From: Maribacter halichondriae
Lineage (GTDB): Bacteria > Bacteroidota > Bacteroidia > Flavobacteriales > Flavobacteriaceae
Direction of reading: 5' to 3'
Assembly: GCF_027474825.1 (NCBI RefSeq)
Contig: NZ_CP107030.1
Location: 1,047,001 to 1,111,000 of the forward strand
DNA length: 64,000 nucleotides
Shown here one piece after another: positions 15,058-38,050 of this stretch; position 1 is the stretch's first letter, and every line of letters starts with the position of its first letter. Below the pieces are notes generated by a model. That model did no database searches and was not told where the DNA came from. It was given only the letters and a program-made list of their open reading frames with translations. The translations under genes and the position numbers were made by a program.

Positions 15058-15143
15058 TCGCCCGTTAACGTAAATAACGTTTTCGACTTTCTCGTCGGGT
15101 TTTATGCCCCGAAGTTGCAAAACAAGTGAGATAAAACCCATAT

Positions 15144-15217
<74 letters not shown>

Positions 15218-15219
15218 TA

Positions 15220-15838
15220 GCAAACAAAGGGCTTTCAAGATATTGGGAGCCTTTTTTTATTGATTGGGTAAAACATAGGTAAAACAAAAATCGGGTTAAG
15301 CGCCTATTAAATATACTTGGTTGATAAACGAACCCGCTCTCTCCTTGCACATTCCCCCCAAATCTTACCATGACTTACCTGCGCGTGGATCCTGCTGAGT
15401 TTCTTTAGCGTCCCGACAGGTAAGCGTTAAGAAGAAACTTTGTAGGGCGCAACCGTACCTTTGCTCGGCACACCATACTTTTCCTCTCCCTAACCACAAA
15501 AGCACCCGTAGGGTGTTAGATTCTATAGCAAAGCTCAAGTTGATTTTTTGGATAATTTTAGTCCCGTAAAAGATTAATTAACGAGAACACTAAAAAAGAT
15601 TAGAGCTATGAACCTCATGAATTATGATGTGTCTATTTTTTTTCACAATACTTTCCTATAAGGCATTCCTTTTTATTAGTCTTAAATATGCCTTTATATT
15701 GCTTTTCAGTGTGACATCAAACTGAGCCTATAATATCCAAATTCAAGCAAAACGAAAAAAGAATTAGAAAATATTTTCTATAATAAATACGTCATTTCAT
15801 TGAGAATTTAGAAGTGTTTATCCTAATTTTATGGAGAT
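15220..15838. other. Gene-free region between tRNA-fMet and the hydrogenase operon
   Basis: About 620 bp without a credible ORF. It contains a weak terminator-like hairpin after the tRNA, a perfect 8-bp inverted repeat (CTTACCTG at 15374-15381 / CAGGTAAG at 15417-15424), a small hairpin GCACCC-GTA-GGGTGT near 15507, and an AT-rich leader (15540-15838) that must carry the hydrogenase promoter. A GGAG ribosome-binding site lies just before 15839. No tRNA-3'-end direct repeat or integrase was seen. Confidence 0.6.
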
Positions 15839-16993
15839 ATGACACAGGATCTAGCTAAACAATTTCAAGGCCCAATATCCAATGTTTTTGACGAGGTGCA
15901 CGCTTTTTGGATTGCTGGCGGCAGCTGTGATGGGTGTTCTATCGCAACTGTTGGCGCCAGCAGTCCATCTGTGGAAAACCTATTAAATGGAACTATTCCA
16001 GGGGCGGCAAAAGTAATTCTACACCATCCGGTGTTAGCAGTTAATGCAGGTGAAGAATTTATAAAACCTTTCAGACTAGCTGCTAAAGGGGAGCTAGGCG
16101 CTCCATTTGTGGTGTTGTGCGAAGGCTCCATAATGGACGAAAGTTTGGCGGCCGAAACCGGGGGCTATTGGTCAGGGCTTGGCGCGGATGAAGATGAAAA
16201 TGGAGATCCTCAACCTATTCCTTCCTCCAGTTGGGTTACCAGAATGTCAGAACATGCTGCTGCGGTAATAGCGGTAGGTACCTGTGCAACCTGGGGCGGT
16301 GTTCCGGCAGCGGCCAATAATCCCACCAACGCGGCTAGCGTGATGGACTTACTGGGCGAGGACTATAGAAGTGTCTTAGGATTGCCAGTTGTCAATATAC
16401 CGGGCTGCGCACCACAGGGGGATAATATTACCGAGACTATAGTAGCAGTATTAATGTTTTTGAATGGATTGACTCCGTTACCCGAGTTTGATGAATTAGG
16501 CCGGCCGTCTTGGCTGTTTGATGAAACTGTACATAGAGGATGTACTAGGGCGGGATTTTACGAAGAAGGTAATTTTGCAGATGAACATGGGGATAAGGAA
16601 TGCCTTGTTGAAATTGGTTGTTGGGGCCCTGTTGTACAATGTAACATTAATAAAAGGGGCGCTATTAACAATGCGGGTGGATGCATGAATGTTGGTGCAC
16701 CTTGTATCGGATGTACGATGCCAGGTTTTCCTGATAGCTTCGCGCCATTTTATAAAACGGCACCGGGTACAATGGTTTCATCTAATATTTCTAGAGTAAC
16801 CGGTACAGTAATCCGCAATCTCCGGGAAATGACGATGACTTTTCATAATCGAACAGATAGGTGGAATAAGAATGGGAAGGTTCCTTCGGGTTGGGGCCAT
16901 GTTAAGGAACCCAATCTATTAAAGAAAGTAATGCATTATACCTATGAAAAAATGCAATTTAGTGATAGCCCAAAACCTGGTTCTAAAAAATAA
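15839..16993 (+). CDS. [NiFe]-hydrogenase small subunit
   Basis: The 384-residue electron-transfer subunit carrying three Fe-S clusters. Proximal cluster: C30-x-x-C33, C149 (GTCATWGG) and C190 (PGCAPQG). Distal: H232-x-x-C235, C255, C261. Medial: C268, C289, C292, plus an extra C282 seven residues before C289, where classical enzymes have Pro. No twin-arginine signal and no C-terminal anchor are present, so the enzyme faces the cytoplasm. These traits resemble group 1h/1l uptake hydrogenases (family knowledge) rather than periplasmic HyaA. The first gene of a 13-gene operon; RBS GGAG precedes the ATG. Exact subgroup is an inference. Confidence 0.93.
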   Translation: MTQDLAKQFQGPISNVFDEVHAFWIAGGSCDGCSIATVGASSPSVENLLNGTIPGAAKVILHHPVLAVNAGEEFIKPFRLAAKGELGAPFVVLCEGSIMDESLAAETGGYWSGLGADEDENGDPQPIPSSSWVTRMSEHAAAVIAVGTCATWGGVPAAANNPTNAASVMDLLGEDYRSVLGLPVVNIPGCAPQGDNITETIVAVLMFLNGLTPLPEFDELGRPSWLFDETVHRGCTRAGFYEEGNFADEHGDKECLVEIGCWGPVVQCNINKRGAINNAGGCMNVGAPCIGCTMPGFPDSFAPFYKTAPGTMVSSNISRVTGTVIRNLREMTMTFHNRTDRWNKNGKVPSGWGHVKEPNLLKKVMHYTYEKMQFSDSPKPGSKK

Positions 16994-17001
16994 TCACTTC
17001 A

Positions 17002-17277
17002 ATGGAGAATGAAACACTTTTTAACGAATGGTTAATCGGACTAGGATTGGTCTCCTTAATTGTCGTGATTGCCGCAGTACTTTTGATTTTAGTATTCTTA
17101 GCGGCAAAACGAATCTTAAGATTGGCCGGAGCGGCATTGGAAATTGTCACTCAAATAAAAAATAATACTTCAAGCATTTGGGAATTGGAAACTACCAATA
17201 AGGTAGCTGTTGATATTCAAAATGAAGCGGAAGCAATTGAAGCACATGCTACATTGGTAGCTGAAGCTTTGGAATAA
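17002..17277 (+). CDS. Hydrogenase-associated membrane microprotein 1
   Basis: A 91-residue protein: one N-terminal transmembrane helix (about residues 11-34), a basic stop (AAKRILR), then a long amphipathic helix ending in a highly acidic tail (EAEAIEAHATLVAEALE). It starts 9 bp after the small subunit stop. It shares its design (one span plus cytoplasmic helix) with the next four genes. It is probably one part of a scaffold that ties the soluble hydrogenase to the membrane. The role is inferred from position and topology. Confidence 0.8.
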   Translation: MENETLFNEWLIGLGLVSLIVVIAAVLLILVFLAAKRILRLAGAALEIVTQIKNNTSSIWELETTNKVAVDIQNEAEAIEAHATLVAEALE

Positions 17278-17292
17278 TAAGGAAATAAAAGT

Positions 17293-17619
17293 ATGAGCAC
17301 GGGAATTCAATTATGGATAATATCATTGGTCATTGGCCTTGTAGTCATTGGCGTAGTGGCATTTCTTCTCAATTTAGTAAAGAAAACCGCCGTTAAGATC
17401 GACGATACCGCTGCAGATATTTGGACTCAAGGAAAACTTACAGCAAACAACACGATTCATATTCCTTTGTTTTTAACTAAAACGAACCAAGTGGCGGGCA
17501 AAATCCTAAAAGCAGCAGTAGCTATTGTGGGAGGTTCAAAGGCCATTACGCAACATATTGAAGGTTGTCCGGGCTGTCCTTATTGTATCTTGCAATCCTC
17601 TAAAAATAATGTCCTATGA
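17293..17619 (+). CDS. Hydrogenase-associated membrane microprotein 2, with C-P-G-C-P-Y-C motif
   Basis: A 108-residue protein with one transmembrane helix (about 8-29, ISLVIGLVVIGVVAFLL), a basic flank (KKTAVK), a central amphipathic helix and, unlike its neighbours, a C-terminal cysteine cluster C-x2-C-x2-C (IEGCPGCPYCIL, about residues 92-98). The three closely spaced Cys could bind a metal or an Fe-S cluster, or form a disulfide. It overlaps the next gene by 4 bp, indicating translational coupling. Confidence 0.8.
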   Translation: MSTGIQLWIISLVIGLVVIGVVAFLLNLVKKTAVKIDDTAADIWTQGKLTANNTIHIPLFLTKTNQVAGKILKAAVAIVGGSKAITQHIEGCPGCPYCILQSSKNNVL

Positions 17620-17906
17620 GTGTATTGTTAATGGTCATTACAATTCTGGCGGTACTTCTTTTGGTGTATGTTTTGGTGCATTATCTAAGAGGAATTATCA
17701 AACTACTAACCAGCATCGGAGGTAGTGGTTCTAGTTATTTGGCTAAATTGAGGCTAGGTCTTAGGGCAATTGAAACTGAAACAGGGCATCTTCCTACTCA
17801 AGTTACCAAGTTGAATGGAGCCCTGACGGAAGTAGCAGGGGGACTAAAAGTGGTTGACGATGAATTAGAGGCATCTATAAACGCCGCGGTAAAACAAAAA
17901 GTGTAG
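17616..17906 (+). CDS. Hydrogenase-associated membrane microprotein 3
   Basis: 96 residues: an N-terminal transmembrane helix (about 3-22), a Gly/Ser turn (GGSGSS) and a predicted helix with heptad-like hydrophobics (LTEVAGGLKVVDDELEASI). Microproteins 3, 4 and 5 share a similar soluble half, suggesting duplication. No enzymatic motif. It sits 1 bp before the next gene. Confidence 0.78.
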   Translation: MSVLLMVITILAVLLLVYVLVHYLRGIIKLLTSIGGSGSSYLAKLRLGLRAIETETGHLPTQVTKLNGALTEVAGGLKVVDDELEASINAAVKQKV

Positions 17907-17907
17907 T

Positions 17908-18198
17908 ATGGAAACTGTAAACATTTTATGGTTGATATTATTAATAGTTACGGTACTTGTATTACCATACCTAATCCATTTGTTGCACAAGACATGGCAG
18001 GCGGCAAGGTCCATCGAACGTTATTTTAAAGAAATGAAGGAAGCTGGAATTGGAATTGCAAACAATACGGAACATGTTAAAGCTTTGGATGATACTATTG
18101 GTGTCGCGTCGGGCATTTTGGGAGTTGCAGGGTCTATAAATGAACATTCGGACACCTTAAAAACAACCTTGGCGGCCAGAGCGGAAAAAATAAATTAG
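17908..18198 (+). CDS. Hydrogenase-associated membrane microprotein 4
   Basis: 96 residues: a strongly hydrophobic N-terminal helix (LWLILLIVTVLVLPYLIHLL), a basic/aromatic flank (HKTWQAARSIERYFKEMKEAG), then a Gly/Ala-rich segment (IGVASGILGVAGSI) and a basic tail. Tightly packed in the operon between microproteins 3 and 5. Probably oligomerises with them. No known family recognised by eye. Confidence 0.78.
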   Translation: METVNILWLILLIVTVLVLPYLIHLLHKTWQAARSIERYFKEMKEAGIGIANNTEHVKALDDTIGVASGILGVAGSINEHSDTLKTTLAARAEKIN

Positions 18199-18205
18199 AA
18201 ATTCA

Positions 18206-18481
18206 ATGAATACAACAACACTATTTGTAGCTACACTTATTATCGTTACCCTTTTGGTGTTGGTATTGGTTATATATCTTATATTGATTATAGTTGCGCT
18301 ACGAAGAGCCGGAACCCACCTAGAAGGTCTGGCCGGAGGGTTGAAAAAAATACAAGATGATACCGGACCATTGGGAGAGAAGGTAGGAGTCATTAATGGT
18401 GCACTACAACAACTCCACAGTGGATTATCCTCCGTAGATTCGCATCTAGTCGCTATAGCAAAAGTTTTAAAACTAGTCTGA
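18206..18481 (+). CDS. Hydrogenase-associated membrane microprotein 5
   Basis: 91 residues: a long hydrophobic N-terminus (about 5-31) and an amphipathic soluble half (AGGLKKIQDDTGPLGEKVGVINGALQQLHSGLSSVDSHL) resembling microprotein 3 (GLKVVDDE..., NGAL). It lies 29 bp before the large subunit. The shared N-G-A-L and G-G-L-K signatures support common ancestry of microproteins 3 and 5. Confidence 0.78.
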   Translation: MNTTTLFVATLIIVTLLVLVLVIYLILIIVALRRAGTHLEGLAGGLKKIQDDTGPLGEKVGVINGALQQLHSGLSSVDSHLVAIAKVLKLV

Positions 18482-18510
18482 TTAAAATAATTTAAATAAT
18501 AATATCGCCT

Positions 18511-20385
18511 ATGTGCTTTAAAAATTTACCGATTGCATTTGATGAAGATGGAAACGCCTATTTAAAAGAAGGTCTCAAAGATCCCTATGAGCATAAAGTA
18601 GTCGATTTAGGTGAGGAGCAGGAAGTTTTAAAAGGCTTGTTGGAACGCAACGGATTTATCAGAAATATAGATTATGACCCAGTAACCCGTGTTGCCGGTG
18701 CGCTCGCTTTTCACAGCGTAGTTGACTTGGAAAAAAGGAAGGTATTGTCTACAAACTCAATGGCTACGCTGTTTCGTGGCTATGAAGTGATTCTAAAGGG
18801 TAGAGACCCTAGGGATGCAGCTTATATTAGTAGTAGAGCTTGCGGAGTTTGTGGTGGCGTACACGCTACAACCGCGGCCTTGGCCATTGAAATGGCCTTA
18901 GACATCAAGCCACCACCATTGGGCATTGTTATGCGTAATATTCTATTGGCCATTGAATACCTCTACGATCATCCATTGCACCTTTTCTTGTTGGCCGGTC
19001 CTGACTATTCAGAAGAATTGGTTCGTGAGACCAATCCTGAACTCATAGATAAGGCGGCAGCTACTAAAGCAAAGCATAAAGATGTTCATGATTATGAAAC
19101 CGTTTTGGATATCATGAAAGATTTGAACCCCCTAAAAGGTAAATTATATCTCGAGGCATTGTCAATGACCCGTGTAGCTAGAGAAGCATACGTTTTTATC
19201 GGGGGTAAATATCCCCATCCTCAGTCTGTCGTGCCAGGCGGACTTTCGGTCACTGTGACTGCTTCTGTTCTTAATGAAGTCTACAGTAGATTGATTAAGT
19301 TTTTCGATTATAGCCAAAAAGTAACAGGAATCTGGGATGATGTTTTTGATTTCTTTTTGGAAAGCAACCCAGAATATGCAAAGTGCGGTATTCGACCGGC
19401 GACCATGATGGATACGGGGGTTTGGGATAGGCCAGACCATTATGACGCTTCTTTTGAAAATTGTGATAAATGGGGCGAAGCACGATGGTCTACACCGGGA
19501 GTTTTGGTAGATGGCGAGGTGGTTACCACGAAGCTTACCGAATTGAATGCAGGTTTAGAAGAATTTGTAGAACATTCCTATTACGAAAAATGGGACGGAC
19601 ATCGTTTTAAAGAAGATCCCAATGGGATGCCTTTAAGCCCAAACCATCCCTGGAACAAGGAGACCATTCCGAAACCCGGAAAGCAAAGCTGGAAAGACCG
19701 TTATAGCTGGGATACTGCCCCTACGTGGGACAGAATGCCGATGGAGGCTGGTGCGTATACCAGAATGTATATGACCGCAAAAGCGCAAAAAGCCCCTGCA
19801 AGTCAATTTTTGGAAAATACGGGAACCAGTATGAAAATTCATGTGCCCAAACATTTTCTCCCAGAAAAAACCTTAGAATGGAAAATTCCGGAACATTGGA
19901 ATGCCTTTGAACGTAACAGAGCAAGAGCGTATTGTATACCCTATTCGGCCATGGTCGCTATGGAGAATTGGCTGCTTGCAATGGATCTTATCAAAAACGG
20001 AGAAACAAAAGTAAGTGTGCCATACGAGATTCCTAAAAAAGGAACACATATCGGTTTTGGAGCATGGGGTGCCGGCAGAGGTTTCCTAACACACCATCTC
20101 ATTGTGGAGAATGGTGTTATTGAAAATTATCAAATTATTACCCCGTCCACACTTAATGCAGCACCAAGAACTCCTTGGGGTGAAATGGGCCCTTATGAAG
20201 AGGCGGTACTAAATACACCCATTCTTGAAAAATTCGATAAACCAGAAGACTATAAGGGCATCGACATTTTAAGAGCTATCCGTAGTTTTGATCCTTGTAT
20301 GCCTTGTACCACACATATCATGGCCAAGGATTCTGATCATATGGTAACAAGAGAGGTAACAACCTGTGCATGTGGTATTGAATAA
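18511..20385 (+). CDS. [NiFe]-hydrogenase large (catalytic) subunit
   Basis: The 624-residue catalytic subunit that splits H2. The Ni-Fe site ligands are all present: L1 motif C111-G-V-C114-G-G-V-H and L2 motif D-P-C596-M-P-C599-T-T-H602. A 22-residue C-terminal extension (603-624, with two further Cys near the end) follows H602 and should be removed by an endopeptidase after Ni insertion. It overlaps the next gene by 20 bp. With the small subunit and no cytochrome b gene, electrons probably go to quinone by another route, such as the microprotein scaffold (inference). Confidence 0.96.
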   Translation: MCFKNLPIAFDEDGNAYLKEGLKDPYEHKVVDLGEEQEVLKGLLERNGFIRNIDYDPVTRVAGALAFHSVVDLEKRKVLSTNSMATLFRGYEVILKGRDPRDAAYISSRACGVCGGVHATTAALAIEMALDIKPPPLGIVMRNILLAIEYLYDHPLHLFLLAGPDYSEELVRETNPELIDKAAATKAKHKDVHDYETVLDIMKDLNPLKGKLYLEALSMTRVAREAYVFIGGKYPHPQSVVPGGLSVTVTASVLNEVYSRLIKFFDYSQKVTGIWDDVFDFFLESNPEYAKCGIRPATMMDTGVWDRPDHYDASFENCDKWGEARWSTPGVLVDGEVVTTKLTELNAGLEEFVEHSYYEKWDGHRFKEDPNGMPLSPNHPWNKETIPKPGKQSWKDRYSWDTAPTWDRMPMEAGAYTRMYMTAKAQKAPASQFLENTGTSMKIHVPKHFLPEKTLEWKIPEHWNAFERNRARAYCIPYSAMVAMENWLLAMDLIKNGETKVSVPYEIPKKGTHIGFGAWGAGRGFLTHHLIVENGVIENYQIITPSTLNAAPRTPWGEMGPYEEAVLNTPILEKFDKPEDYKGIDILRAIRSFDPCMPCTTHIMAKDSDHMVTREVTTCACGIE

Positions 20386-20917
20386 TATCCTAATAGGTAC
20401 GGTTGGTTATCACCTATTACGTAATCATTCTGTAGGCCCTATTTTGCTTCCGCAACTAAATGCGGAGGCTTGGAATGACAAAGTGACCATTGAAGAAATG
20501 AACTGGGGTCCTATTGCCATTGTTCAATATTTTCAAACACTTAAGATTCCGTTTGACCGCGTTATTTTTTTAGTGGCTATAGAGAGAGCAGAGCGGAAAA
20601 TTGGTGATATCTCCGTTTATCAATGGTTGGGAAAACTGCCTGACGAAAAACAAATTCAAGCTTGTGTTGGTGATGCGGCGACTGGTGTGATTTCGGTTGA
20701 AAACCTCCTTGTGATAGGTGAGTTCTTCAAAATTTGGCCCAAGGAAGTATTTTTGGTTGATGTTGAACCGGGAGAAGAGCAGGCCGGTGAGCACCTCACT
20801 GAGGAGGTAAAAGATAAGATTCCTGAAATTTTACGTATTTTAGAAGAGCTGACCCAGGATGGAGCGGTTTTGATGGAAACTAAAAAGCTGCAAGGGGACA
20901 CACTATTCGAAGAGTAA
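20366..20917 (+). CDS. Divergent HycI/HupD-fold protein, protease-like but lacking the usual acidic metal ligand
   Basis: 183 residues. The overall pattern follows hydrogenase maturation endopeptidases: N-terminal strand-Gly loop (ILIGTVGYHLLRNHSVGP), a middle strand (FDRVIFLVAI) and a late strand (KEVFLVDVEP). The G-N-x-L-x-x-D-D-G signature is replaced by G-T-V-G-Y-H-L-L-R-N-H, so the first metal-binding Asp is missing. It may be a chaperone for the large subunit rather than a protease; the operon carries a second, canonical protease at 22438. It overlaps the large subunit by 20 bp. Confidence 0.6.
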   Translation: MHVVLNNILIGTVGYHLLRNHSVGPILLPQLNAEAWNDKVTIEEMNWGPIAIVQYFQTLKIPFDRVIFLVAIERAERKIGDISVYQWLGKLPDEKQIQACVGDAATGVISVENLLVIGEFFKIWPKEVFLVDVEPGEEQAGEHLTEEVKDKIPEILRILEELTQDGAVLMETKKLQGDTLFEE

Positions 20918-20921
20918 GAAT

Positions 20922-21317
20922 ATGAATGATAAAATAGAAGACAGCCCATTACGTTCCCTTTTTTGGAAGGATGAGATTCTGCAGGTATTATACTGGATGC
21001 ACGGTGAAGGTATGGGGTCAGAGGTAAGTCTGCCTCAAATGCTTCCCTTTTTAAATACTTCTTATCAAAATTTAGAATATCATCTTCAAAAAATAACTGA
21101 TGCAGGTTTGCTTGTCGGTGATAAGAAAGAAGGTGTCATCTATTACAAATTATCTGAATCTGGCAAAAAAGAAGGAGGTCGGCAGTTTGCCGAGGCATTT
21201 CAAGGTATGCAAAAAGCTGGGCATGGAGAATGCGGTCCTGATTGCGAATTTTGTTACGGTTCTGACGGGGTAAAGCTTGAAAACTGTGTTCATAACTGTG
21301 CTAGCGGCTCCCACTAA
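20922..21317 (+). CDS. Winged-helix protein with C-terminal Cys cluster
   Basis: 131 residues. Residues about 15-85 look like a winged helix (KDEILQVLYWM..., NTSYQNLEYHLQKITDAGLL, then a beta-wing GVIYYKLSESGKK). The last 30 residues carry five Cys in C-x3/4-C-x2-C...C-x3-C (ECGPDCEFCYG, ENCVHNC) plus His. It could be a redox-, nickel- or iron-sensing regulator of the hydrogenase operon, or an Fe-S protein. Starts 4 bp after the previous stop. No known family assigned. Confidence 0.7.
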   Translation: MNDKIEDSPLRSLFWKDEILQVLYWMHGEGMGSEVSLPQMLPFLNTSYQNLEYHLQKITDAGLLVGDKKEGVIYYKLSESGKKEGGRQFAEAFQGMQKAGHGECGPDCEFCYGSDGVKLENCVHNCASGSH

Positions 21318-21318
21318 T

Positions 21319-21612
21319 ATGAAACCTATACTTTTTAACAATGTAGAGTTCAAGGAAATCATGCAGTATATGCAAGAATTGGTCAAACAATCAGCGACTA
21401 TTGAAGATGAGCAAACAAAGGAATTTATTTCGGAAATACTCAAGTATTATGACTTAATGCATCGCGAGCCTCTTTCAAGAATGCTTCAAGCTATTGAAAG
21501 TAGCTACCCTGATTTAAAAGATACCCTAAAACAAGACTATACAATAAATACACTTTTAGAGCTTTATGATTTTGAAAGCACCAACCTCCCTAATATTCAA
21601 AAAAAGACCTAG
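21319..21612 (+). CDS. Small helical protein of the hydrogenase operon, function unknown
   Basis: 97 residues, acidic and predicted all-helical (VEFKEIMQYMQELVKQSATIEDEQTKEFISEILKYYDLMH). ATG 21319 was chosen because the in-frame start at 21277 would overlap the previous gene. It overlaps the lipoprotein gene that follows by 47 bp. Possibly a hydrogenase assembly factor; the function is not recognised. Confidence 0.65.
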   Translation: MKPILFNNVEFKEIMQYMQELVKQSATIEDEQTKEFISEILKYYDLMHREPLSRMLQAIESSYPDLKDTLKQDYTINTLLELYDFESTNLPNIQKKT

Positions 21613-22423
21613 TTTTCTGCTTATTTTGCTGACTGTTTTGCTGGGTATGGGATGCAAAGATGATTCTAAAAAGGATAGTACAGCAGTACAAATTGAGGCT
21701 GCCAATCAAGACTTGAGCGAGGCGGAGAAATTGGTAGATGAAGCCATAAATCACTCCGGAGGCATGAGCAATTGGGCCGCTAAAAAAACCTTGTCCTATA
21801 CAAAAAACATTCAAAGTTATGATTCCACAGGTACTTTACTTCGAACCGTAGCACAAGCGCATAAGTATCGGTTAAAACCTTCCTTCAAGGCAAATATCAG
21901 TTGGGAGCAAGATGGAATCAAACACGAAATAATCAATAACGGAGGGCAAGCCTGGAAATTGGTCAACGGAAAAATTCAGGATGACGAAGCCTCTGTAAAT
22001 ACCGCTTGGAATTCTTCATTCGGTTCTCAGTATATGGTAAGTATGCCATTTAAATTAAAGGCCCCCGGAACCATACTAAACTATGAAGGTATTGATACCC
22101 TATCCAATAATAGAAAAGTACATAAGCTTAAAGTTACTTATGAAAAGGGTGCTGGAAGTTCAGGAGGAATGCATACCTGGCATTATTTTTTAAACATGGA
22201 TAACTATCAATTTGAGGCTAATTTTTTAGACCATGGTAAGGGATTCTCCTATACCGATTATGAAACCTTTGTAGAGGTTGATGGCATAGCTGTTACCAAG
22301 GAAAGAAAAAGTTATGGTTCGAATGAAAACATGGAAACTACCTACCTTAAAACTATATATAGCAATTCCGATATTCAATTTGATGTAGAATTGCCGGAAG
22401 AATTGTTTAAAGTAAACAACTAA
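21566..22423 (+). CDS. Hydrogenase-locus lipoprotein, LolA/LolB-like beta fold (DUF6503-like)
   Basis: 285 residues with a lipoprotein signal (LTVLLGMGC-KDD). The mature part has a pattern seen in outer-membrane lipoprotein-sorting-like beta barrels: VDEAINHSGGMSNWAAKKTLSYTKNIQ, then many antiparallel strands. It resembles the membrane protein at 23015 in several places: VDEAI..SGGM..W and VDDIVDAAGGLDTW, SMPFKLK in both, and a terminal ELPEELF/ELPDGFF. The two are paralogues inside the hydrogenase operon. Their role could be scaffold or lipid/quinone handling at the cell envelope (inference). Confidence 0.7.
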   Translation: MILKAPTSLIFKKRPSFLLILLTVLLGMGCKDDSKKDSTAVQIEAANQDLSEAEKLVDEAINHSGGMSNWAAKKTLSYTKNIQSYDSTGTLLRTVAQAHKYRLKPSFKANISWEQDGIKHEIINNGGQAWKLVNGKIQDDEASVNTAWNSSFGSQYMVSMPFKLKAPGTILNYEGIDTLSNNRKVHKLKVTYEKGAGSSGGMHTWHYFLNMDNYQFEANFLDHGKGFSYTDYETFVEVDGIAVTKERKSYGSNENMETTYLKTIYSNSDIQFDVELPEELFKVNN

Positions 22424-22437: not shown

Positions 22438-22949
22438 GTGCTGAAAAAAATCCTAATTGCCGGAGTTGGTAATGAATTAAAGCAGGATGATGCCTTCGGT
22501 ATTGAATTCGCCAAAAAATTTCGGGATGTTGTTTCTCATTTAGGCCATATTATGGTAATGGAAGTGGGTATCGGAGGTATTCATTTAGTACAAGAGTTAC
22601 ACGCAGAGTATGATATTTTGGTATTAGTAGATGCCGTGGCGTGGGGCGAAGAGGCAGGCCATATTTATTTTCGGGAAATGGAAAAAGTGTCCGATATTGA
22701 GGAAATGCCCGTTTTTGAAAAAGAACGTTTCTTGCCGACATGCACTATACCAACCCTATCAGAGCCTTGATGTTGGCCAAGGCATTGAAAGTCTTGCCCA
22801 ATGAAGTATATATCTTGGGTTGTGAGGCTGCAGAACACAATGACTTTGCTATCGGAATGACCACTGTGGTTGAAAATGCGATACCTCGAGCGATCGGCCA
22901 GTTGCAAAGCTGGCTGAGCACTAAAAAACTGGCAAATTTTGAATTGTGA
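22438..22949 (+). CDS. [NiFe]-hydrogenase maturation endopeptidase, frameshifted
   Basis: The specific protease that trims the large-subunit C-terminus. It starts with GTG. The first part has the nickel-binding signature (GVGNELKQDDAFG, then DILVLVDAV) and the second part reads M-H-Y-T-N-P-I-R-A-L-M-L-A. The frames are joined by adding one T at 22728-22730, giving ...KERFLADMHYTNP..., total about 170 residues, the usual size. The catalytic Asp and His are all present after repair. As read, the protein would end early at 22770. Either assembly error or a recent mutation that would block maturation. Confidence 0.85.
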
Positions 22950-23014: not shown

Positions 23015-24001
23015 ATGAATCAGGACATTAAGCCAAATCAAAGCCCCAAAAAGGTTCAGAAACAATCCGAGGAAAAAATCCCTTGGTGGTTTAACATGCA
23101 TGTAAAAGACTTGGTAAAACCCATTACCATAAAACGCATACAATTAGTATCTGCAGGAGCACTTTTACTTGCTTTAATTGCTGGTGGATCATATGCATGG
23201 GAAAATTTTTTAAGGGAGCCCACGGGTGCTGAATTTGTTGATGATATCGTTGATGCAGCCGGTGGTCTTGATACCTGGAATAGCATTGAACATGGGCAGT
23301 TTACACGTACCCATAATTTGTACGATGATACTGGTGAATTATTAAAGTCTACCGAAGAGACTTTTTATTTCAAAAGAGGAAAGGAAGGCCTAAAGTTGCA
23401 GGTTAAGTCTGTTGGAAATGATAATAGTGAAGTGGTGGTTGGAAAGGATGACGAAGGATTTTGGGCAACCAAAGACAATCAAACGGTAGACCCAATGGTT
23501 GCAGCCAAGGATGAAGGAATGATGTGCGATTCTAAATTTTGTGACCCTCAATGTGCTTCTTCGATGGCATTCTTTCGGTTTTCAATGCCGTTTAAACTAA
23601 AAGATAGGGGAGTGAATGCGAGTTTGGCATCAACGGGATTCAATATTGCGGAGTTGAATTTGCTGGGAGGTTCTGGTAAAGAACCGACTTTGCTTGATAT
23701 TTCTTATGACCCCAAAGTGGGAAAGGATAGCTGGCGGTTTTATGTAGACCCTCAGGATAAATTGATTCACAAAGTTGAATATTATAACAAGTCTGATAAA
23801 GGGGAAACCCGCCCCGAAGAAATTTATTGGACAGATCACAAAAACGTTGATGGCATAACTTTTAGCCATCGATGGACAAGGTATTGGCCCAATGGCAAGG
23901 TCATGGACGAATATGTGTATTCAGACGTGAACTTGGACAGCGAATTACCTGACGGATTTTTCAATAGAAGAAATTCTTCGTCAATTGCTGCAAATCGATA
24001 G
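23015..24001 (+). CDS. Membrane-anchored paralogue of the 21566 lipoprotein, function unknown
   Basis: 328 residues: a cytoplasmic basic N-terminus (about 1-45), one transmembrane helix (about 47-66), and an exported domain resembling the 21566 lipoprotein. A distinctive Cys group, MMCDSKFCDPQCASS (about residues 169-183), could bind metal or form disulfides. It has no frameshift. It is the last gene of the forward hydrogenase operon, 65 bp after the protease gene, possibly with its own promoter, and converges on the reverse-strand cooC-like gene. Function not recognised. Confidence 0.72.
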   Translation: MNQDIKPNQSPKKVQKQSEEKIPWWFNMHVKDLVKPITIKRIQLVSAGALLLALIAGGSYAWENFLREPTGAEFVDDIVDAAGGLDTWNSIEHGQFTRTHNLYDDTGELLKSTEETFYFKRGKEGLKLQVKSVGNDNSEVVVGKDDEGFWATKDNQTVDPMVAAKDEGMMCDSKFCDPQCASSMAFFRFSMPFKLKDRGVNASLASTGFNIAELNLLGGSGKEPTLLDISYDPKVGKDSWRFYVDPQDKLIHKVEYYNKSDKGETRPEEIYWTDHKNVDGITFSHRWTRYWPNGKVMDEYVYSDVNLDSELPDGFFNRRNSSSIAANR

Positions 24002-24012: not shown

Positions 24013-24783
24013 CTACCCGGCTAGAATAGAATCGCATAATTTTTCTAAGGCTTTTACTACTTTGGCCTCAGGGTCAAAATCGATAACGGACATCCCTTTC
24101 AGGTCTGCAGCCATGACCTGTTCGTCAAACGGAACGAATGCCGCAATCGGAAGGTTGATTTTAGCGCAGTACTCGCGTATGGCCATTTCATCTTCTTTCG
24201 TGCGTACCTTATTGGCAATGGCCTCAACTTGACCAATACCCAATTGTTCCGCCATTTCAGCAAATCGCGATGCCGCCTCTAAGGATCTGTAATAGGGTTC
24301 GACCACCGTATATATTTTATCAACATATTTAGAGGTTCCCCGTTTCATATGTTCTAGCGATGCCTCTGTATCCAAAACCATAATTTGGCCTTGTTCAGAG
24401 GTTAAGGCCGCATTTACCAATTCGCGAACAACGGTATGTGAACCACACATACATCCAGTTCCAGCCTTTTCAGGTTTCCCTACCTTTAGCAAGGTCACAT
24501 TATCTGTCACCTTTTGCCCATACGTATCCAAAACTTCTTGAAAGGGCATTTTGACCTGAAATTTCCATTTCCCATCTTCGGTCTCCACTCTTTCAATAAT
24601 ATCGGTGCTTAAATTAGGCGGTCCCACATCAGATTTGTCAATACCCAGAACAATAGAGAGGTTGGGGTTGGGGTCGCCATCGATAGCAAGTACAGTATCA
24701 CCTTTGGCTCCGAAAATACGGCAAAGCGTTCCACTAATAGTGGTTTTACCCACTCCACCTTTACCTGCTATTGCTATCTTCAT
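24013..24783 (-). CDS. CooC-like MinD-family ATPase, probable nickel-insertion factor
   Basis: 256 residues with a deviant Walker A (GKGGVGKTT, residues 7-15), IDGDPNPNLS, a C-M-C motif (TGCMCGSH) of the CooC type, and a VLDTEA Walker B region. CooC proteins load Ni into CO dehydrogenase. No CODH is in this window, and hypA and hypB are missing from the cluster, so this ATPase may take the HypB role, as MinD-family HypB does in some archaea (established for Thermococcus; the transfer to this organism is inference). It is the last gene of the reverse hyp operon. Confidence 0.8.
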   Translation of the reverse strand: MKIAIAGKGGVGKTTISGTLCRIFGAKGDTVLAIDGDPNPNLSIVLGIDKSDVGPPNLSTDIIERVETEDGKWKFQVKMPFQEVLDTYGQKVTDNVTLLKVGKPEKAGTGCMCGSHTVVRELVNAALTSEQGQIMVLDTEASLEHMKRGTSKYVDKIYTVVEPYYRSLEAASRFAEMAEQLGIGQVEAIANKVRTKEDEMAIREYCAKINLPIAAFVPFDEQVMAADLKGMSVIDFDPEAKVVKALEKLCDSILAG

Positions 24784-24804: not shown

Positions 24805-25062
24805 TTATTGGTCGTCTGGCCGTATATCATCAAGTTCATCGGTTCCCAGTAGAAAATCCATAGTACGTTTTGCTTCTGCCTCATCCACTACACTCATGGC
24901 TACACCAACATGAACCAGCACATAGTCGCCTTCCACGGCCTCTGGAACGAGGCCTAGATTGATTTTTTTTACAATACCATCGAAGGATACTTTGCCTATT
25001 CTGAAAACACTTTCTATTTTATCCTCAAAACCTATAATTTTTCCGGGTACAGCCAAACACAT
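24805..25062 (-). CDS. hypC: Hydrogenase maturation chaperone HypC
   Basis: 85 residues, starting M-C-L-A-V-P-G with the essential Cys2 that holds the Fe(CN)2CO precursor with HypD. The small OB-fold core (VSFDGIVKKINLGLVPEAVEGDYVLVHVGVA) is intact. It lies 21 bp before the CooC-like gene and 16 bp after the TetR gene. Confidence 0.95.
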   Translation of the reverse strand: MCLAVPGKIIGFEDKIESVFRIGKVSFDGIVKKINLGLVPEAVEGDYVLVHVGVAMSVVDEAEAKRTMDFLLGTDELDDIRPDDQ

Positions 25063-25078: not shown

Positions 25079-25744
25079 TCAGGTTAATTTACGGAAATCA
25101 AGCGAGATAGATTCATCCAAATAAAATTTTAATTGAGGCAGTATCACAGCTTCAAATTCCATCCACCCGGCTTCGGTAAGCAAAGGAACCAATTGATTCC
25201 AAATAAATTCTTTAAAATGCCCCTCACCAATTTCACTTTTACCACGCACCTGACGTTGCGTAAGCCAAAATGTAATAATCATCCAAATTGATTCTGCAGT
25301 ATGTAGGTATTGCCTATCTAATTGTTCAGGTTTTATGATGCCTTTTTCCGAATTCAACCGCAACCATTCTTCTATTTGTACAATCATTTTCTCCAAATAT
25401 GTCACACGTTTTGCGTGCATTTTTGGGTAGGCCCTTTCCATTTCAAGGAGATCCAAGAAATAAAAGGAATACTGATTGAGCACAAAAAAATAGCGTCCCA
25501 AATGATTGTCAAAGTCAATGAGGGATGGAAAATTTTGGTCAACGGATAATAACAACTCCAGTTCATTTCCCAATTCTGCGTCTATAGCTTGAATTATAGC
25601 TTTTTTGCTGTAATAATGGTACGCAAGATTTCCCACGCTAATACCCGATTCGTCGGCGATTTGTTGCAGGCGAATATTGACCAATCCCTTTTCATTAAAG
25701 AGTTTGATAGCAGCGTTTAATATTTTTTGCTTCGTACCGCTCAT
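25079..25744 (-). CDS. TetR-family transcriptional regulator
   Basis: 221 residues. The N-terminal helix-turn-helix is clear (LNAAIKLFNEKGLVNIRLQQIADESGISVGNLAYHYYSKKAII). The C-terminal ligand domain is large and Leu/Tyr-rich. It is embedded between the TonB receptor (9 bp) and hypC, so it probably regulates the hydrogenase/nickel locus; the ligand is unknown. Confidence 0.85.
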   Translation of the reverse strand: MSGTKQKILNAAIKLFNEKGLVNIRLQQIADESGISVGNLAYHYYSKKAIIQAIDAELGNELELLLSVDQNFPSLIDFDNHLGRYFFVLNQYSFYFLDLLEMERAYPKMHAKRVTYLEKMIVQIEEWLRLNSEKGIIKPEQLDRQYLHTAESIWMIITFWLTQRQVRGKSEIGEGHFKEFIWNQLVPLLTEAGWMEFEAVILPQLKFYLDESISLDFRKLT

Positions 25745-25753
25745 TGAATTTGT

Positions 25754-27927: not shown

Positions 27928-28986
27928 TTAACAGATACGAGGCAGCTGCTCCCCAACTAACATATTTACAATGCGTTTACCGCCTATAGAACTTGTGAGA
28001 ACTACTTGTTTTGGATGGGTTTCTGTCACTTCCCCTATGATGGCAGCATGTTTTCCAAATTCCATAGATTGAAGCTTTTTGACAACCTCTTCGGAGATTT
28101 TATCAGTGACCACCGCAATGAAGATTCCCTCATTGGCTACATAAAGTGGATCCAAACCAAGGATTTCACAGAGCGCACTTACTTCATTTTGTAACGGGAG
28201 CTTTTTTTGCAAGATTTCTACGCCTAGATTTCTATCCCTTGCAATTTCATTTAATACTGTTGCCACACCACCTCGGGTCGGGTCTTTTAGTAAATGGATA
28301 TCTTCTCCGAATTCATCGAGTAGTTCGGCAACTATATAATTTAAACCTCTGGTATCACTTTTTACAGCGGTTTCAAATTCTAAGCCCTCGCGTACCGACA
28401 TGATGGCCACCCCATGGGTAGCGATTGAATCACTTACAATAATTTTATCGCCAGGTTTTACATTTTGGGTTGAAATTTGAGCGCGTGCATGTATTTGCCC
28501 AACGCCACTAGTGTTTATGAATATTTTATCACCTTTTCCTTTTTCAACCACCTTGGTATCTCCGGTCACTATTTGTACACCAGCTTGCTCCGCAGCCGAT
28601 TTAATAGCCACCAGTATATCCCAGAACTCGGTCATTTTTAAACCTTCTTCCAGGATAAAACTTAAAGAAAGGTATTTAGGGATGGCCCCGCACATGGCCA
28701 AATCATTCACAGTGCCGTTCACTGCTAACTCGCCAATATTACTATCAGGGAAAAAAATAGGAGAGATGACAAAACTATCTGTAGTAAACGCTGTTTTACC
28801 TTTTAATTGTAATACAGCCCCATCATGGCGCTGTCGTAAATGTTCGTTGTCGAAAAGATGAAAAACGCCAGAATCAAGTAATTTATTAGTTAAAAGACCA
28901 CCACTACCATGACCAAGAGTTATTATATCGAAGTCCAATTCAGGCATCGGACATTGCAGTTTCATTTTCAAGTTTTTTTCTGACAT
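27928..28986 (-). CDS. hypE: Hydrogenase maturation protein HypE
   Basis: 352 residues. HypE dehydrates the carbamoylated C-terminal Cys to thiocyanate, giving the CN ligands. The PurM-like ATP-binding domain shows LGHGSGG, FTTDSFVISPIFFPD and DLAMCGA. The C-terminus ends in P-R-I-C, the acceptor Cys. It follows hypD by 18 bp. Confidence 0.96.
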   Translation of the reverse strand: MSEKNLKMKLQCPMPELDFDIITLGHGSGGLLTNKLLDSGVFHLFDNEHLRQRHDGAVLQLKGKTAFTTDSFVISPIFFPDSNIGELAVNGTVNDLAMCGAIPKYLSLSFILEEGLKMTEFWDILVAIKSAAEQAGVQIVTGDTKVVEKGKGDKIFINTSGVGQIHARAQISTQNVKPGDKIIVSDSIATHGVAIMSVREGLEFETAVKSDTRGLNYIVAELLDEFGEDIHLLKDPTRGGVATVLNEIARDRNLGVEILQKKLPLQNEVSALCEILGLDPLYVANEGIFIAVVTDKISEEVVKKLQSMEFGKHAAIIGEVTETHPKQVVLTSSIGGKRIVNMLVGEQLPRIC

Positions 28987-29004: not shown

Positions 29005-30105
29005 TTAGGCAAGGGTTTCTGCCGCTCCACTGAAGTGATAATATGCGGCACAGGCTCCTTCTGAACTGACCATAGGAGCTCCCATCGGATTTTGAGGAGT
29101 ACATTTTTTGCCGAACTGTGAGCACTGCATAGGTTTTTTAATTCCTTTTAAAACCAAACCTGCAATACATTCTTTGGGTTCTTCAACTTTTTCGATATGA
29201 ATATTGAACTTTAAATTGGCATCGAAAGATGCATATTCAGGTCTTAATTCGAAACCACTCTTAGGAATATTTCCAATACCCCGCCACTCCCTATCGGAAA
29301 CCTTAAAAATTTTATGAATGAGTTCCTGTGCTTTGAGATTGCCTTTGGGTTTAACAACACGACTATATTGATTTTGAAGAACTGCTTCTCCTTTTTCCAA
29401 TTGTTGAACGGTAAGTAGTACGCCCTGTAAAAGGTCTACGGGTTCAAAACCCGTGACTACCATCGGAATTTTATATTTGGTCACTAAAGGATAGTAGTCA
29501 TCCATACCCATAATTGTACATACATGACCTGCAGCTAAAAACGCATCTATCTTACTTTCTTCGTCTTCAATTACCGCTTCCATGGCTGGTGGCACCAGTA
29601 CCTGAGAAGCTAAAATGGAAAAGTTGGTAAGACCCATATCATGCGCCTTGTCAATTGAAAGTGCATTCGCAGGTGCCGTGGTCTCAAAACCAACTGCAAA
29701 AAAGACCACTTCTTTGCTGGGATTATCACTTGCAATTTGAACGGCTTCCAAAGGAGAGTATAAAATGCGAATGTCTGCACCTGCGGCTTTCGCCTGTAAC
29801 AAACTCTTTTCTGATCCGGGTACTCGTAACATATCTCCAAAAGAACAAAGAATAACGTGTTCTTCCTCGGCTAGATGGATGGCCTTGTCAATTAAATGCA
29901 GCGGAGTAACACAAACCGGACATCCCGGTCCGTGAATCATTTGGACTTCTTTGGGCAACAAATCCATAATTCCGTTTTTAACCAGACTATGGGTCTGTCC
30001 ACCACATACTTCCATGATATTCCATGGTTGTGTAACGGTGGCATGTATTCCATCTAAATATTTTTTTGCCAAATCGGCATCACGGTATTCGCTTAGAAAT
30101 TTCAT
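29005..30105 (-). CDS. hypD: Hydrogenase maturation protein HypD
   Basis: 366 residues. Motifs: MEVCGGQTHSL, GPGCPVCVTP, FFAVGFETTAPANA, EPVDLLQG, ECIAGLVLKGIKKPMQCSQFGKKCTP (Fe-S cluster Cys). HypD with HypC builds the Fe(CN)2CO unit. It overlaps hypF by 4 bp (ATGA). Confidence 0.97.
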   Translation of the reverse strand: MKFLSEYRDADLAKKYLDGIHATVTQPWNIMEVCGGQTHSLVKNGIMDLLPKEVQMIHGPGCPVCVTPLHLIDKAIHLAEEEHVILCSFGDMLRVPGSEKSLLQAKAAGADIRILYSPLEAVQIASDNPSKEVVFFAVGFETTAPANALSIDKAHDMGLTNFSILASQVLVPPAMEAVIEDEESKIDAFLAAGHVCTIMGMDDYYPLVTKYKIPMVVTGFEPVDLLQGVLLTVQQLEKGEAVLQNQYSRVVKPKGNLKAQELIHKIFKVSDREWRGIGNIPKSGFELRPEYASFDANLKFNIHIEKVEEPKECIAGLVLKGIKKPMQCSQFGKKCTPQNPMGAPMVSSEGACAAYYHFSGAAETLA

Positions 30106-32388
30106 CCTTCAATAGTTTGATAATATGCTAATTGGCCCAAAGCGATGTTTTCGTCATTGGACGATACTTCTTGATGAAAATAGAGTTGAAAATTAGCCTT
30201 TAGGTGAATCATCATCAAATCTACCAATAGTCCGTTCTGAAAAACACCGCCACTAAAGGCTATTTTTTCCATGTTGTTTGCAAAAGCAACTGCCTCAACC
30301 ATCTTCACTAAAGAATAATGGAACTTAAATGCAATTTTATTTTTGTCAATTCCTTTGTGCAAATCGCAAACCACTCCTTCTAGAATAGTTGTGGTTGATA
30401 TTTCTTCAAGATACGATATTTGAGAAATATAATTCGAATCTGTAATATCTTCATTTTTATTAACGTAGGTTTGAGCTAGTGTTTCAAGTTGAAGGGCCGC
30501 TTCTCCCTCATAGGTTTGTGTATCCATAACACCCAACAGGCAGGCAATAGCATCGAATAAACGACCCATACTCGATGTTTTTAAAGGTGGGTCAGTATTT
30601 AATAGTTTTTGATACAATTCCCATTCTTGGGCATTAAACTTGTCTTTAAGCATACCTAGGGCATCGGAATTCTGCCAAGAATGTGCTAGTGCCGAAATAC
30701 GGGGTTCAAGGGCCATTTTATCACCTAAGATGGAAGGCGCGTATGAAAGGTGTGCAAGTCTACTGAACGCTGCATTTTCAAACTTTAAAAACTCACCGCC
30801 CCAGCTATTCCCATCAGTACCATAACCAGTGCCATCCCATATGACTCCCAAGACCTTTTCCGGTTTTGTCAGCAATGAATGTTCTGATAAAACTCCGGCG
30901 AAATGGGCCAAGTGATGTTGTATGTAAACGAGTTTTGCACCATATGTAGCGGCTAACTGTTTTCCATATTCGGTTGAAAAATAGTTAGGATGCTTATCGA
31001 CTAAAATGATTTCAGGTCGACAATTCAACAGATTTATGAAATGTGCAATAGTTCTTTTATAGTTTTCGGCACTTTCAAAATATGCCAAATCACCAAGGTA
31101 TTGACTTAAATAAAACAAGTCTTGGCTAAGCAAACCGAAAGCACTTTTTTGAGATGCCCCCATTGCTAATAGTACAGCTGCTTTTTTATTTGAAACCGGT
31201 CCGAAATAGTTGGGCGCCAAACCACGGGACCTGCGAATAAGTATTTGTTTTTTTCAAGGGACTAAAACGAACTACGCTATCATCTTGGGATGTTATAATC
31301 TCACGGTCATTGGTTAGCACATAATCCCAAATTCCGGCTAGTTCGGAAAATACCTTTCTATCTTCAAACACAATAGAAGCATTACTTAGGTTTCCACTTG
31401 TTGCAACTATTGGTTTTCCATATGCCTGTAATAGGAGTTCATATAATGGAGTGTAAGGTAACATTACCCCTATTTGGTCTAGACCAGGCACTACTTCATT
31501 TACCGCAATGCTGGCTCGTTTCTTTTTTAACCGTAATAATACAATTGGAGCTACTTCCCCCGATAACATTTCAAGCTCAGAAACGTGTGTTTGAAATTCT
31601 CGTTGTACCAATTCGACATTGGGGTACATACAAGCAAATGGCTTTGATGGCCTGTGTTTCCTTTTTCTGAGTGTATTTACCGCGTTGGAACTGGTAGCAT
31701 CACAGGTCAATAGGTATCCTCCTATGCCTTTGATCGCAACAATTTTTCCTTTCTCCCATAAAGCCACAACTTTTTTAATAGCCAAGTCTGAATTGCTTTC
31801 AAATTCTTCCCCCAAAGTGTTTGCCAGACTTAATCGGACACCACAATCAGAGCAAGAATTGGTTTGGGAATGGTATCTGTGATTTTCCGGGTTTGTATAC
31901 TCTTCATTACAAGTTGTGCACATTTTGAATTCGTTCATTGCGGTGAATTCCCTTTCGAATGGCAGATTGTTAATCAATGAAAAGCGTGGCCCACATTGGG
32001 TGCAGGTAGTGAAAGGGTATAGTGCCCGACGGTTATCGCTTGATTGAATCTCTGTTCTACAGTTTTCGCACATCGCAAAATCGGGAGGAAGCATCAATGC
32101 AGCAGTTTTGACTTCCTGATTTTGTAGAATTTGAAAATCTTGAAAACTTTGGTCTTTGACTTTGAAAATGGTATGTCCCGTAATTTTTGCCAAGCTAGGT
32201 GCACCCTTAAGTACAGACTTATAAAAAGGAATTGCAGTTTCTTCTTTGGCCACAAATTGAATATGAAGACCATCCAGGTCGTTGTAAACAATCCCATTTA
32301 GTTTTTGTTTGGCAGCTAATCGGTATACATAAGGCCGAAACCCTACCCCTTGCACTCTTCCAGTAATATGTATGTGCCAAGTTTTCAT
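30102..32388 (-). CDS. hypF: Carbamoyltransferase HypF, split by a +1 frameshift
   Basis: HypF makes the CN ligand from carbamoyl phosphate. N-terminal acylphosphatase domain (GRVQGVGFRPYVYRL), two zinc fingers (CENCR...CTQCG, CTTCN...CSDCG), YrdC domain, then a C-terminal Kae1-like domain (CDLHKGID, FSGGVFQNGLL, SNDENIALGQ). As read, the first ORF ends at 31186 and the second starts at 31220. Removing one A from the seven-A run (plus T-run 31248-31254) restores ...SPLKKQILIRRSRGLAPNYFGPV..., a 761-residue HypF, the normal length. Start ATG 32388 is preferred over 32415. Confidence 0.92.
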
Positions 32389-32606
32389 TAGCCTACCAAT
32401 ATAGGAAATTATCATGCGGTTAGCGATCTCTTAATTGAGATAAAGAAGTTGGGGTAATGTTGGTGAGAAAAAGAAATTCCCAATCAAGATTTTGACACTT
32501 ATACTTTCTGGCTAATTGGGAGCATTTAGATTATCCACTTCAACTACTTGTCCCATAAAACGAACTTTTTGGTGCTAAGGATAGACTCTAGAAAATATTA
32601 TCAGAT

Positions 32607-35278: not shown

Positions 35279-35304
35279 TTTATATCTCGATTTTATCGAT
35301 TTTC

Positions 35305-35368
35305 ACTTCGTAGAAGTAGGCGGTTTCGCGGTGCGCGAAACATCACTTGCTATCCACCTTCGTGGATA
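35305..35368. repeat. Cluster of three hairpins, candidate oriT
   Basis: Three consecutive perfect stems lie just upstream of mobC: 35305-35317 (ACTTC/GAAGT), 35323-35341 (GTTTCGCG-GTG-CGCGAAAC) and 35351-35368 (TATCCAC/GTGGATA). Tight, spaced inverted repeats beside mobC and a relaxase are typical of transfer origins. They could also be attenuators. No nic site was identified. Confidence 0.45.
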
Positions 35369-36438: not shown

Positions 36439-36461
36439 AATAACATTGTTATGACTACTCT

Positions 36462-36884: not shown

Positions 36885-36933
36885 GTGTTTGATAATTTAG
36901 GGGAAAGTTAATTCTGTTGATAAATCTTATCAA

Positions 36934-36945: not shown

Positions 36946-36951
36946 GTTTTA

Positions 36952-37992: not shown

Positions 37993-38050
37993 AGTTTTAA
38001 TTAACCACCCTTAGAGCCTGTTTTGAATATCATTCAATACGCTAGCCTAC

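What the first reader, a model, noticed from the sequence alone, without database searches (positions are those of the whole stretch)
15839..20385. [NiFe]-hydrogenase with five consecutive membrane microproteins between its small and large subunits
Seen: the small subunit gene (no Tat signal), five 91-108-residue one-span proteins in a row with overlaps or tiny gaps, then the large subunit. Family knowledge: group 1h/1l uptake hydrogenases oxidise trace H2, and the mycobacterial enzyme Huc sits on a membrane-reaching HucM scaffold. Inference: these five proteins form a comparable membrane scaffold or quinone conduit, with microproteins 3 and 5 sharing GGLK/NGAL signatures that suggest duplication. 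No cytochrome b gene is present. This is the best candidate in the window for an undescribed architecture.
Basis: partly seen in the sequence, partly recalled or inferred. Interest (0 to 1): 0.86.

Follow-up and report, generated by a model that had tools for sequence, protein, structure and literature searches.

The report
Five membrane microproteins inside a hydrogenase
Between the genes for the two halves of a hydrogenase this bacterium carries five small proteins, each with one predicted membrane span, an arrangement already in print for "group 1l" hydrogenases; the five fall into two related families and likely tether the enzyme to the membrane so that its electrons would reach the respiratory quinone pool.

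Summary
In detail: small subunit, five 91-108-residue one-span proteins, large subunit, in that order at 15839-20385. The architecture is not undescribed. A 2022 paper states that group 1l [NiFe]-hydrogenase clusters carry five short transmembrane proteins (HylTM1-5) between the subunits, citing a 2021 study I could not read. The window's large subunit sits in that clade in a 60-row tree; the locus is a new member of a known kind.

Added here: HylTM1, 2 and 4 are one paralogous family (A), HylTM3 and 5 another (B). All five read N-out/C-in by charge. HylTM2 ends in H-x3-C-x2-C-x2-C in 32 of 35 five-gene hydrogenase loci and in none of 9 two- or four-gene loci. 1l small subunits have Cys33 (38 of 38) where 1h have Asp (14 of 14), and a tail mostly missing in 1h. 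None of 14 1h loci has such genes in the held flanks. Two genomes carry the collinear five-gene set away from any hydrogenase gene while holding a 1h-type large-subunit gene, or a piece of one, elsewhere. Function is inferred: a membrane stalk passing electrons to quinone, HylTM2 perhaps holding a metal centre.

The parts
15839..16993 (+). hylS, [NiFe]-hydrogenase small subunit, no Tat motif; Cys at 30, 33, 149, 190 (proximal-cluster ligands by recalled family knowledge) and a 1l-type C-terminal tail
17002..17277 (+). HylTM1, family A, one predicted span, N-out/C-in by charge
17293..17619 (+). HylTM2, family A, ends in H-x3-C-x2-C-x2-C (HIEGCPGCPYC)
   Evidence: model (mean pLDDT 68, motif region about 50)
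17616..17906 (+). HylTM3, family B; predicted helices 2-36, 41-56, 59-95
17908..18198 (+). HylTM4, family A
18206..18481 (+). HylTM5, family B
18511..20385 (+). hylL, [NiFe]-hydrogenase large subunit (RACGVC, DPCMPC)
20366..20917 (+). hydrogenase maturation protease-like protein (TIGR00072 below its cut-off, no Pfam family), hit in 39 of 40 1l loci and 0 of 14 1h loci
20922..21317 (+). winged-helix-like protein (weak, below cut-offs) with three conserved Cys, hit in 38 of 40 1l loci, 0 of 14 1h loci
22438..22949 (+). second maturation protease (HycI family), reading frame interrupted near 22740 in the window
24013..24783 (-). CooC/MinD-like P-loop ATPase, hit in 35 of 40 1l loci, 0 of 14 1h loci
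24805..25062 (-). HypC
27928..28986 (-). HypE (AIRS domains; name recalled)
29005..30105 (-). HypD
30102..31220 (-). HypF C-terminal part
31186..32415 (-). HypF N-terminal part

Best explanation
This is a group 1l [NiFe]-hydrogenase whose five one-span proteins (HylTM1-5), which belong to two paralogous families, likely form a mixed helical membrane stalk that would hold the cytosolic enzyme at the membrane and pass its electrons to menaquinone. Shown: the gene order, the clade, the two families, the one-sided charge pattern, the conserved His/Cys motif of HylTM2, and the absence of a PF01292 cytochrome b. Inferred: the five assemble with each other; the 1l-specific tail of the small subunit docks on them; quinone is reached through or beside the stalk; and in most lineages a metal centre (perhaps iron-sulphur) on HylTM2 adds a relay between the last cluster of the small subunit and the quinone. 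The A plus B pair would be the minimal unit, because two Chloroflexota-type loci (L033, L035) have only one of each.
For: Order S-TM1..TM5-L in 35 loci (Bacteroidota, SAR324, Pseudomonadota, and L081 and L125 from the phylum of L035), four-gene (7) or two-gene (2) versions in others, none in 14 1h loci. Profiles: A = TM1/2/4 (97-98% probability), B = TM3/5 (98%); parts after the span alone 91-96%; 20 reversed controls at most 17%. The B-family profile matches 1 of 395 Bacteroidota genomes, the window's own, also the only one with the large subunit at E<=1e-80, and 1 of 220 genomes of the class of Marinovum, the one used as centre. More K/R after the span than before it in 33/33, 35/35, 31/35, 32/32, 33/33 rows of TM1-5. 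Hydrophobic period 3.40-3.54 in all five tails; 0, 6, 16, 2, 0 of 500 shuffles reach it. Model of TM3: three helices, mean pLDDT 90. Hx3CxxCxxC in TM2 of 32 of 35 five-gene hydrogenase loci and in 120 of the 120 returned of 1667 database relatives (a list ranked by a profile holding the motif). No PF01292 cytochrome b. Small-subunit tail beyond residue 353 with Tyr369 in 38 of 38 1l rows, gap there in 14 of 14 1h rows.
Against: No complex was modelled and nothing is measured. Profiles of TM2 and TM3/5 find no solved relative beyond generic or designed coiled coils among the rows shown, and Foldseek finds nothing for the TM3 model; both models have low pTM (0.35, 0.39). The Cys motif is absent from two Roseomonas five-gene loci, the ORF stops inside it in a third (L125), and it is missing in all 9 two- and four-gene loci, so it cannot be essential to every 1l enzyme. 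Two genomes carry the five-gene set with no hydrogenase gene beside it. Robiginitalea biformata and Marinovum algicola, with 1l enzymes, did not substantially consume H2 in culture (PMC10305171, passages).
Confidence: 0.55

Rival explanations
1. HylTM1-5 are only a membrane anchor; electrons leave HylS for a separate quinone reductase or diffusible carrier encoded elsewhere, and the motif of HylTM2 is structural (for example a zinc site).
For: Two-gene and four-gene loci and the Roseomonas five-gene loci do without the motif; no quinone-site motif was recognised.
Against: No PF01292 cytochrome b in the genome. Of the accompanying proteins found in at least half of the 40 1l loci, none shows a Pfam electron-carrier domain (the CooC-like ATPase also matches Fer4_NifH); the 183-, 131- and 111-aa ones have no Pfam family above cut-off, so a carrier among them is not excluded.
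Confidence: 0.2
2. HylTM1-5 are assembly factors: they hold immature HylS or HylL at the membrane and HylTM2 hands over iron-sulphur clusters or nickel, leaving the mature enzyme without them.
For: A second small protein of the locus, 20922-21317, has a Cys stretch conserved in 41 of 42 rows at each of C104, C108, C111, and the operon is rich in maturation genes.
Against: Five co-encoded spans between the structural genes are more than known maturation systems use (recalled); 14 of 14 1h loci have none nearby.
Confidence: 0.12
3. The block is a general membrane module unrelated in function to hydrogenase that was captured by the 1l operon.
For: Stand-alone collinear sets in L122 and L124 with no hydrogenase gene in 19.5 and 14.7 kb.
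Against: Of the 12 of 350 genomes with B-family matches, one (G317) is a repeat artefact and the other 11 also hold a 1l or 1h-type large-subunit gene or piece of one.
Confidence: 0.08

Closest known systems
Group 1l [NiFe]-hydrogenase with HylTM1-5 (PMC9561532, passages; Ortiz et al. 2021 cited there, not held)
   Same: Five short transmembrane proteins between small and large subunit; large subunit in one clade with Hymenobacter roseosalivarius (74%; tree; its role as 1l reference strain is recalled) and Marinovum algicola (66%), which PMC10305171 names as 1l (passages)
   Different: Nothing in kind; the two-family make-up, the HylTM2 motif, the two- and four-gene forms and the unlinked sets were not in the passages I saw
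Group 1h (HofKG, 5aa5)
   Same: Closest solved structure for both subunits by sequence
   Different: Small and large genes with nothing between in 14 of 14 1h loci; Asp where 1l has Cys33 (14 of 14 against 38 of 38); no HylTM genes within the held flanks; 1l-type tail mostly missing
Huc with HucM stalk (group 2a, PMC10017518, passages)
   Same: Works-like idea: helical stalk between a soluble uptake hydrogenase and the membrane, carrying menaquinone
   Different: HucM is one 188-residue protein in four copies, peripherally associated with the membrane; HylTM are five predicted one-span proteins of two families; no sequence match found
Group 1m (PMC9561532, passages)
   Same: Two single-span proteins of 82-92 residues in the cluster
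   Different: Subunit genes adjacent; whether those two are A and B was not tested here

Membership tests
Group 1l [NiFe]-hydrogenase (Hyl) | Large subunit in the 1l clade, apart from 1h | tested here: met
   the 46 rows that are not 1h (three of them the odd L040-L042) lie on one side of a 100/100 branch against 14 1h rows; the window sits with Maribacter algarum among Bacteroidota. HydDB itself was not run, the 1h label rests on likeness to 5aa5 and gene order, and all 14 1h rows come from one phylum.
Group 1l [NiFe]-hydrogenase (Hyl) | Five short transmembrane proteins between the subunit genes | tested here: met
Group 1l [NiFe]-hydrogenase (Hyl) | Oxidises H2 down to atmospheric level | not testable with these tools
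   Needs culture or purified enzyme
Group 1h [NiFe]-hydrogenase | Asp in place of one Cys in the CxxC of the small subunit (proximal-cluster ligand, recalled); adjacent subunit genes | tested here: not met
   the window has Cys33 and five genes between
HucM-type stalk | Sequence or fold relation to HucM | tested here: inconclusive
   Profiles A1 and A2 against PDB sequences at E<=5 list no hydrogenase chain among the rows shown: 8 of 8 for A1, best 60 of 101 for A2; Foldseek none for the TM3 model. Only residues 20-79 of HucM are modelled in the map, and no direct profile comparison with HucM was made.
HucM-type stalk | Forms a hydrophobic tube holding quinone | not testable with these tools
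   No multimer prediction available

The most novel reading that the evidence does not exclude
HylTM1-5 is a portable redox module for cytosolic high-affinity hydrogenases: a mixed five-helix quinone stalk with an extra metal centre on HylTM2, encoded inside 1l operons and, in some Chloroflexota, as a separate locus that serves an unlinked group 1h enzyme.
Probability: 0.2. Interest if true: 0.75.

Novelty: new member of a known kind. Interest (0 to 1): 0.42.

Why it matters
How a cytosolic trace-gas hydrogenase without a cytochrome b hands electrons to the respiratory chain has been shown for Huc (PMC10017518, passages). My searches on group 1l showed no such answer for 1l; 1h was not searched. 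The conserved HylTM2 motif, the A plus B minimal pair and the unlinked five-gene sets give concrete residues, constructs and genomes with which to test it. The finding itself is a known architecture, so its interest lies in that question.

Tried and rejected
Foldseek of the TM3 model against the PDB gave no match. Profile searches against PDB sequences hit designed and generic coiled coils (A2 best E 9e-10); I take these as a sign of heptad-like composition only. Plasmid collection: the large subunit finds 12 records, all under 60% identity; HylTM3 finds none. A simple growth history A+B, ABAB, AABAB was considered and dropped: in the tree the four-gene loci branch first and the two-gene loci later, and the four-gene order is TM2-TM5-TM1-TM3, not a subset of the five-gene order. 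The idea that the window's cluster is a tRNA-inserted island (tRNA-Met 15144-15217 on one side, relaxase and MobC 32607-35278 on the other) found no exact repeat of 12 or more bases of 15131-15225 in 30000-42000 and no base-composition break, so it is not claimed. HucM as homologue: no support, weakly tested. Weak Pfam hits of HylTM4 to HemY_N (E 7e-4) and HylTM5 to DUF948 (E 1.4e-3) lie below the cut-offs and are not used.
Full report
OBSERVATION. The small subunit (15839-16993) and the large subunit (18511-20385) have hydrogenase domains, and five small ORFs lie between them on the same strand. The microproteins reach no curated cut-off. The small subunit has no RR pair in its first 60 residues and no span-like segment. 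In the whole genome, one contig of 4.53 Mb, the large subunit occurs once and PF01292 cytochrome b does not occur.

WHAT IT IS. The best solved relative of both subunits is 5aa5 HofK/HofG, called the group 1h enzyme of Cupriavidus in PMC9561532. A scan of named genomes gave 42 related loci, among them Hymenobacter roseosalivarius (74%) and Marinovum algicola (66%); the latter is named as group 1l in PMC10305171 (passages). A 60-row maximum-likelihood tree of large subunits (left out: L002, L003, L043) separates 14 1h rows from all others at 100/100. The label 1h for those rows rests on their likeness and gene order, not on HydDB. The window falls beside Maribacter algarum. [quoted passage not shown] The cited source, Ortiz et al. 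2021, is not held. The architecture is therefore known.

A WORD ON NAMES.

CONSERVATION. Ordering ORFs by their stop codons (67 sequences) gives: 35 loci with S-TM1-TM2-TM3-TM4-TM5-L (window, L004-L012, L014-L032, L034, L036, L038, L039, L081, L125; L004/L005 and L026/L027 have identical large subunits, so these are not all independent; L023 has a small subunit in two pieces and a shortened TM2); 6 loci with four genes (order TM2-TM5-TM1-TM3 in L037, L057, L083, L084, L085, where L057 is a contig end without the small subunit; L082 similar, its third gene only at 22 bits to family A); L123 with four genes upstream of the small subunit and a large subunit broken into several frames; 2 loci with two genes (L033, L035); 3 contig ends with a partial set (L002, L003, L013); 14 1h loci with S-L and no A or B protein in the held flanks, which are 2 to 8 kb; 4 with the large subunit alone (L040-L042, and the contig end L043); and two sets without hydrogenase (L122, L124).

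TWO FAMILIES. Profile-profile comparison groups TM1, TM2, TM4 (97.7, 97.5, 97.2%) and TM3, TM5 (98.1%). With the spans cut off the values are 91-95 and 96%; all other pairs of cut tails are at most 1.5%, and 20 comparisons with reversed profiles reach at most 17%. Full-length TM1 against TM5 gives 89% and TM2 against TM5 38%; these fall to 1.4 and 0.7% without the spans, so they reflect the hydrophobic segment.

TOPOLOGY AND SHAPE. Positive charges follow the span in every TM1, TM2, TM4 and TM5 row counted (33/33, 35/35, 32/32, 33/33) and in 31 of 35 TM3 rows, the other 4 being ties: N-out, C-in by the positive-inside rule. The cytosolic tails have a hydrophobic period of 3.40-3.54 residues; 0, 6, 16, 2 and 0 of 500 shuffles reach it for TM1-5. 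AlphaFold2 gives three helices for TM3 (mean pLDDT 90, pTM 0.39) and two long helices and a short third for TM2 with low confidence after residue 50.

HYLTM2 MOTIF. H-x3-C-x2-C-x2-C ends HylTM2 in 32 of 35 five-gene hydrogenase loci, in the partial set L002 and in both stand-alone sets. It is missing in Roseomonas L028 and L029; in L125 the ORF stops inside it (...HASECPG). None of the 9 two- and four-gene loci has it. All 120 proteins returned of 1667 database relatives carry it, but that list is ranked by a profile that contains the motif. The other microproteins are nearly free of Cys (0-10 in 34-37 rows each). One His and three Cys could bind an iron-sulphur cluster or zinc; which, if any, is unknown.

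SMALL SUBUNIT. Of 52 rows, 38 1l rows have Cys at position 33 and 14 1h rows have Asp; position 63 is His in 38 of 38 1l rows and Asn in 14 of 14 1h rows. That position 33 is a proximal-cluster ligand is recalled. The 1l tail past residue 353 holds an invariant Tyr369 and is mostly absent from 1h. It is a candidate docking piece.

GENOME SURVEYS. B-family profile: 1 of 395 Bacteroidota genomes (the window's own; the large subunit also 1 of 395), 1 of 220 of the class of Marinovum (the centre genome itself), 12 of 350 of the phylum of L035. Of these 12, eight have the large subunit at 58-65% identity, G105 has it broken (L123), G317 is a repeat artefact, and G062 and G239 have the five-gene set unlinked to any hydrogenase gene. 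G062 also has a large subunit 75-79% identical to the 1h rows at the edge of another contig, and G239 has a 1h-like C-terminal piece at contig edges. Of the 38 of 350 genomes with a large subunit at E<=1e-80, 30 match at only 38-44%, and one of those 30 (G062) has the B family. The association of unlinked sets with 1h is therefore two genomes, both in many contigs, and binning errors cannot be excluded. Family A alone was not surveyed in genomes.

NEIGHBOURS. Over 40 1l loci and 14 1h loci, phmmer with the window's proteins finds the 183-aa protease in 39 and 0, the 131-aa winged-helix-like Cys protein in 38 and 0, the CooC-like ATPase in 35 and 0, and the second protease in 36 and 13. The first three too mark the 1l system; flanks differ in length, so absences are soft.

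MECHANISM. By elimination and likeness of design, the five spans with cytosolic helical tails are likely the membrane device of an enzyme for which no other was found: they would form a stalk under HylSL as HucM does under Huc (PMC10017518, passages: tetrameric tube lined by hydrophobic residues, menaquinone moved 94 A). This is a works-like claim. Membership in the HucM family has no support. Whether quinone rises through the stalk or electrons descend through a HylTM2 centre cannot be told here; the motif's absence in nine two- or four-gene loci and in Roseomonas says that it is an addition rather than the core.

PRINT CHECK. Searches: 'HylTM' (1 paper), 'group 1l' with hydrogenase and Bacteroidota, transmembrane, or since 2024, hydrogenase/Hymenobacter/atmospheric H2/Hyl, 'Hymenobacter roseosalivarius' with hydrogenase, five hydrogenase terms; 'HucM' returned stem-cell papers among the 15 listed. 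The passages and listings seen mention none of the two families, the motif or the unlinked sets; subscription papers and preprints are not held, so this is not proof that they are unpublished. I saw passages of PMC11018855, PMC9561532, PMC10305171 and PMC10017518, and only listings of the others.

Noticed in passing
window 22438-22949 (+): The HycI-type maturation protease is split between two reading frames near 22740, while the six 1l copies that I looked at (L007, L008, L011, L015, L020, L024) are single ORFs. Real pseudogene or sequencing error; it bears on whether this strain's enzyme matures.
   Followed up: partly
window 20922-21317 (+): A 131-aa winged-helix-like protein with three Cys conserved in 41 of 42 rows each (HGEC-x3-C-x2-C in the window; spacing varies) accompanies 38 of 40 1l loci and 0 of 14 1h loci and has no Pfam family above cut-off; regulator or maturation factor.
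   Followed up: partly
L040 8245-10143, L041 9743-11704, L042 1998-3965: Hydrogenase large-subunit homologues (50-51% identity) without a small subunit in the fetched loci, with the first CxxC reading SGIC in place of CGVC; in L040 and L042 they lie beside HypF and YcaO genes (L041's neighbours were not read). They nest inside the proteobacterial 1l clade on a long branch: perhaps a repurposed large subunit.
   Followed up: partly
L122 8580-10276, L124 5127-9218: Collinear five-gene HylTM sets with the Cys motif and no hydrogenase gene in the 19.5 and 14.7 kb held; L124 goes on with four longer A/B proteins.
   Followed up: partly
window 15144-15217 and 32607-35278: tRNA-Met just upstream of the cluster and a relaxase/MobC pair just downstream of hypF; suggests a mobile island, but no flanking repeat was found.
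   Followed up: partly
window 21566-22423, 23015-24001, 25079-27874: Two DUF6503 proteins, a TetR regulator and a TonB-dependent receptor inside the cluster, found in 19, 18, 15 and 15 of 40 1l loci; the receptor could import nickel (guess).
   Followed up: no
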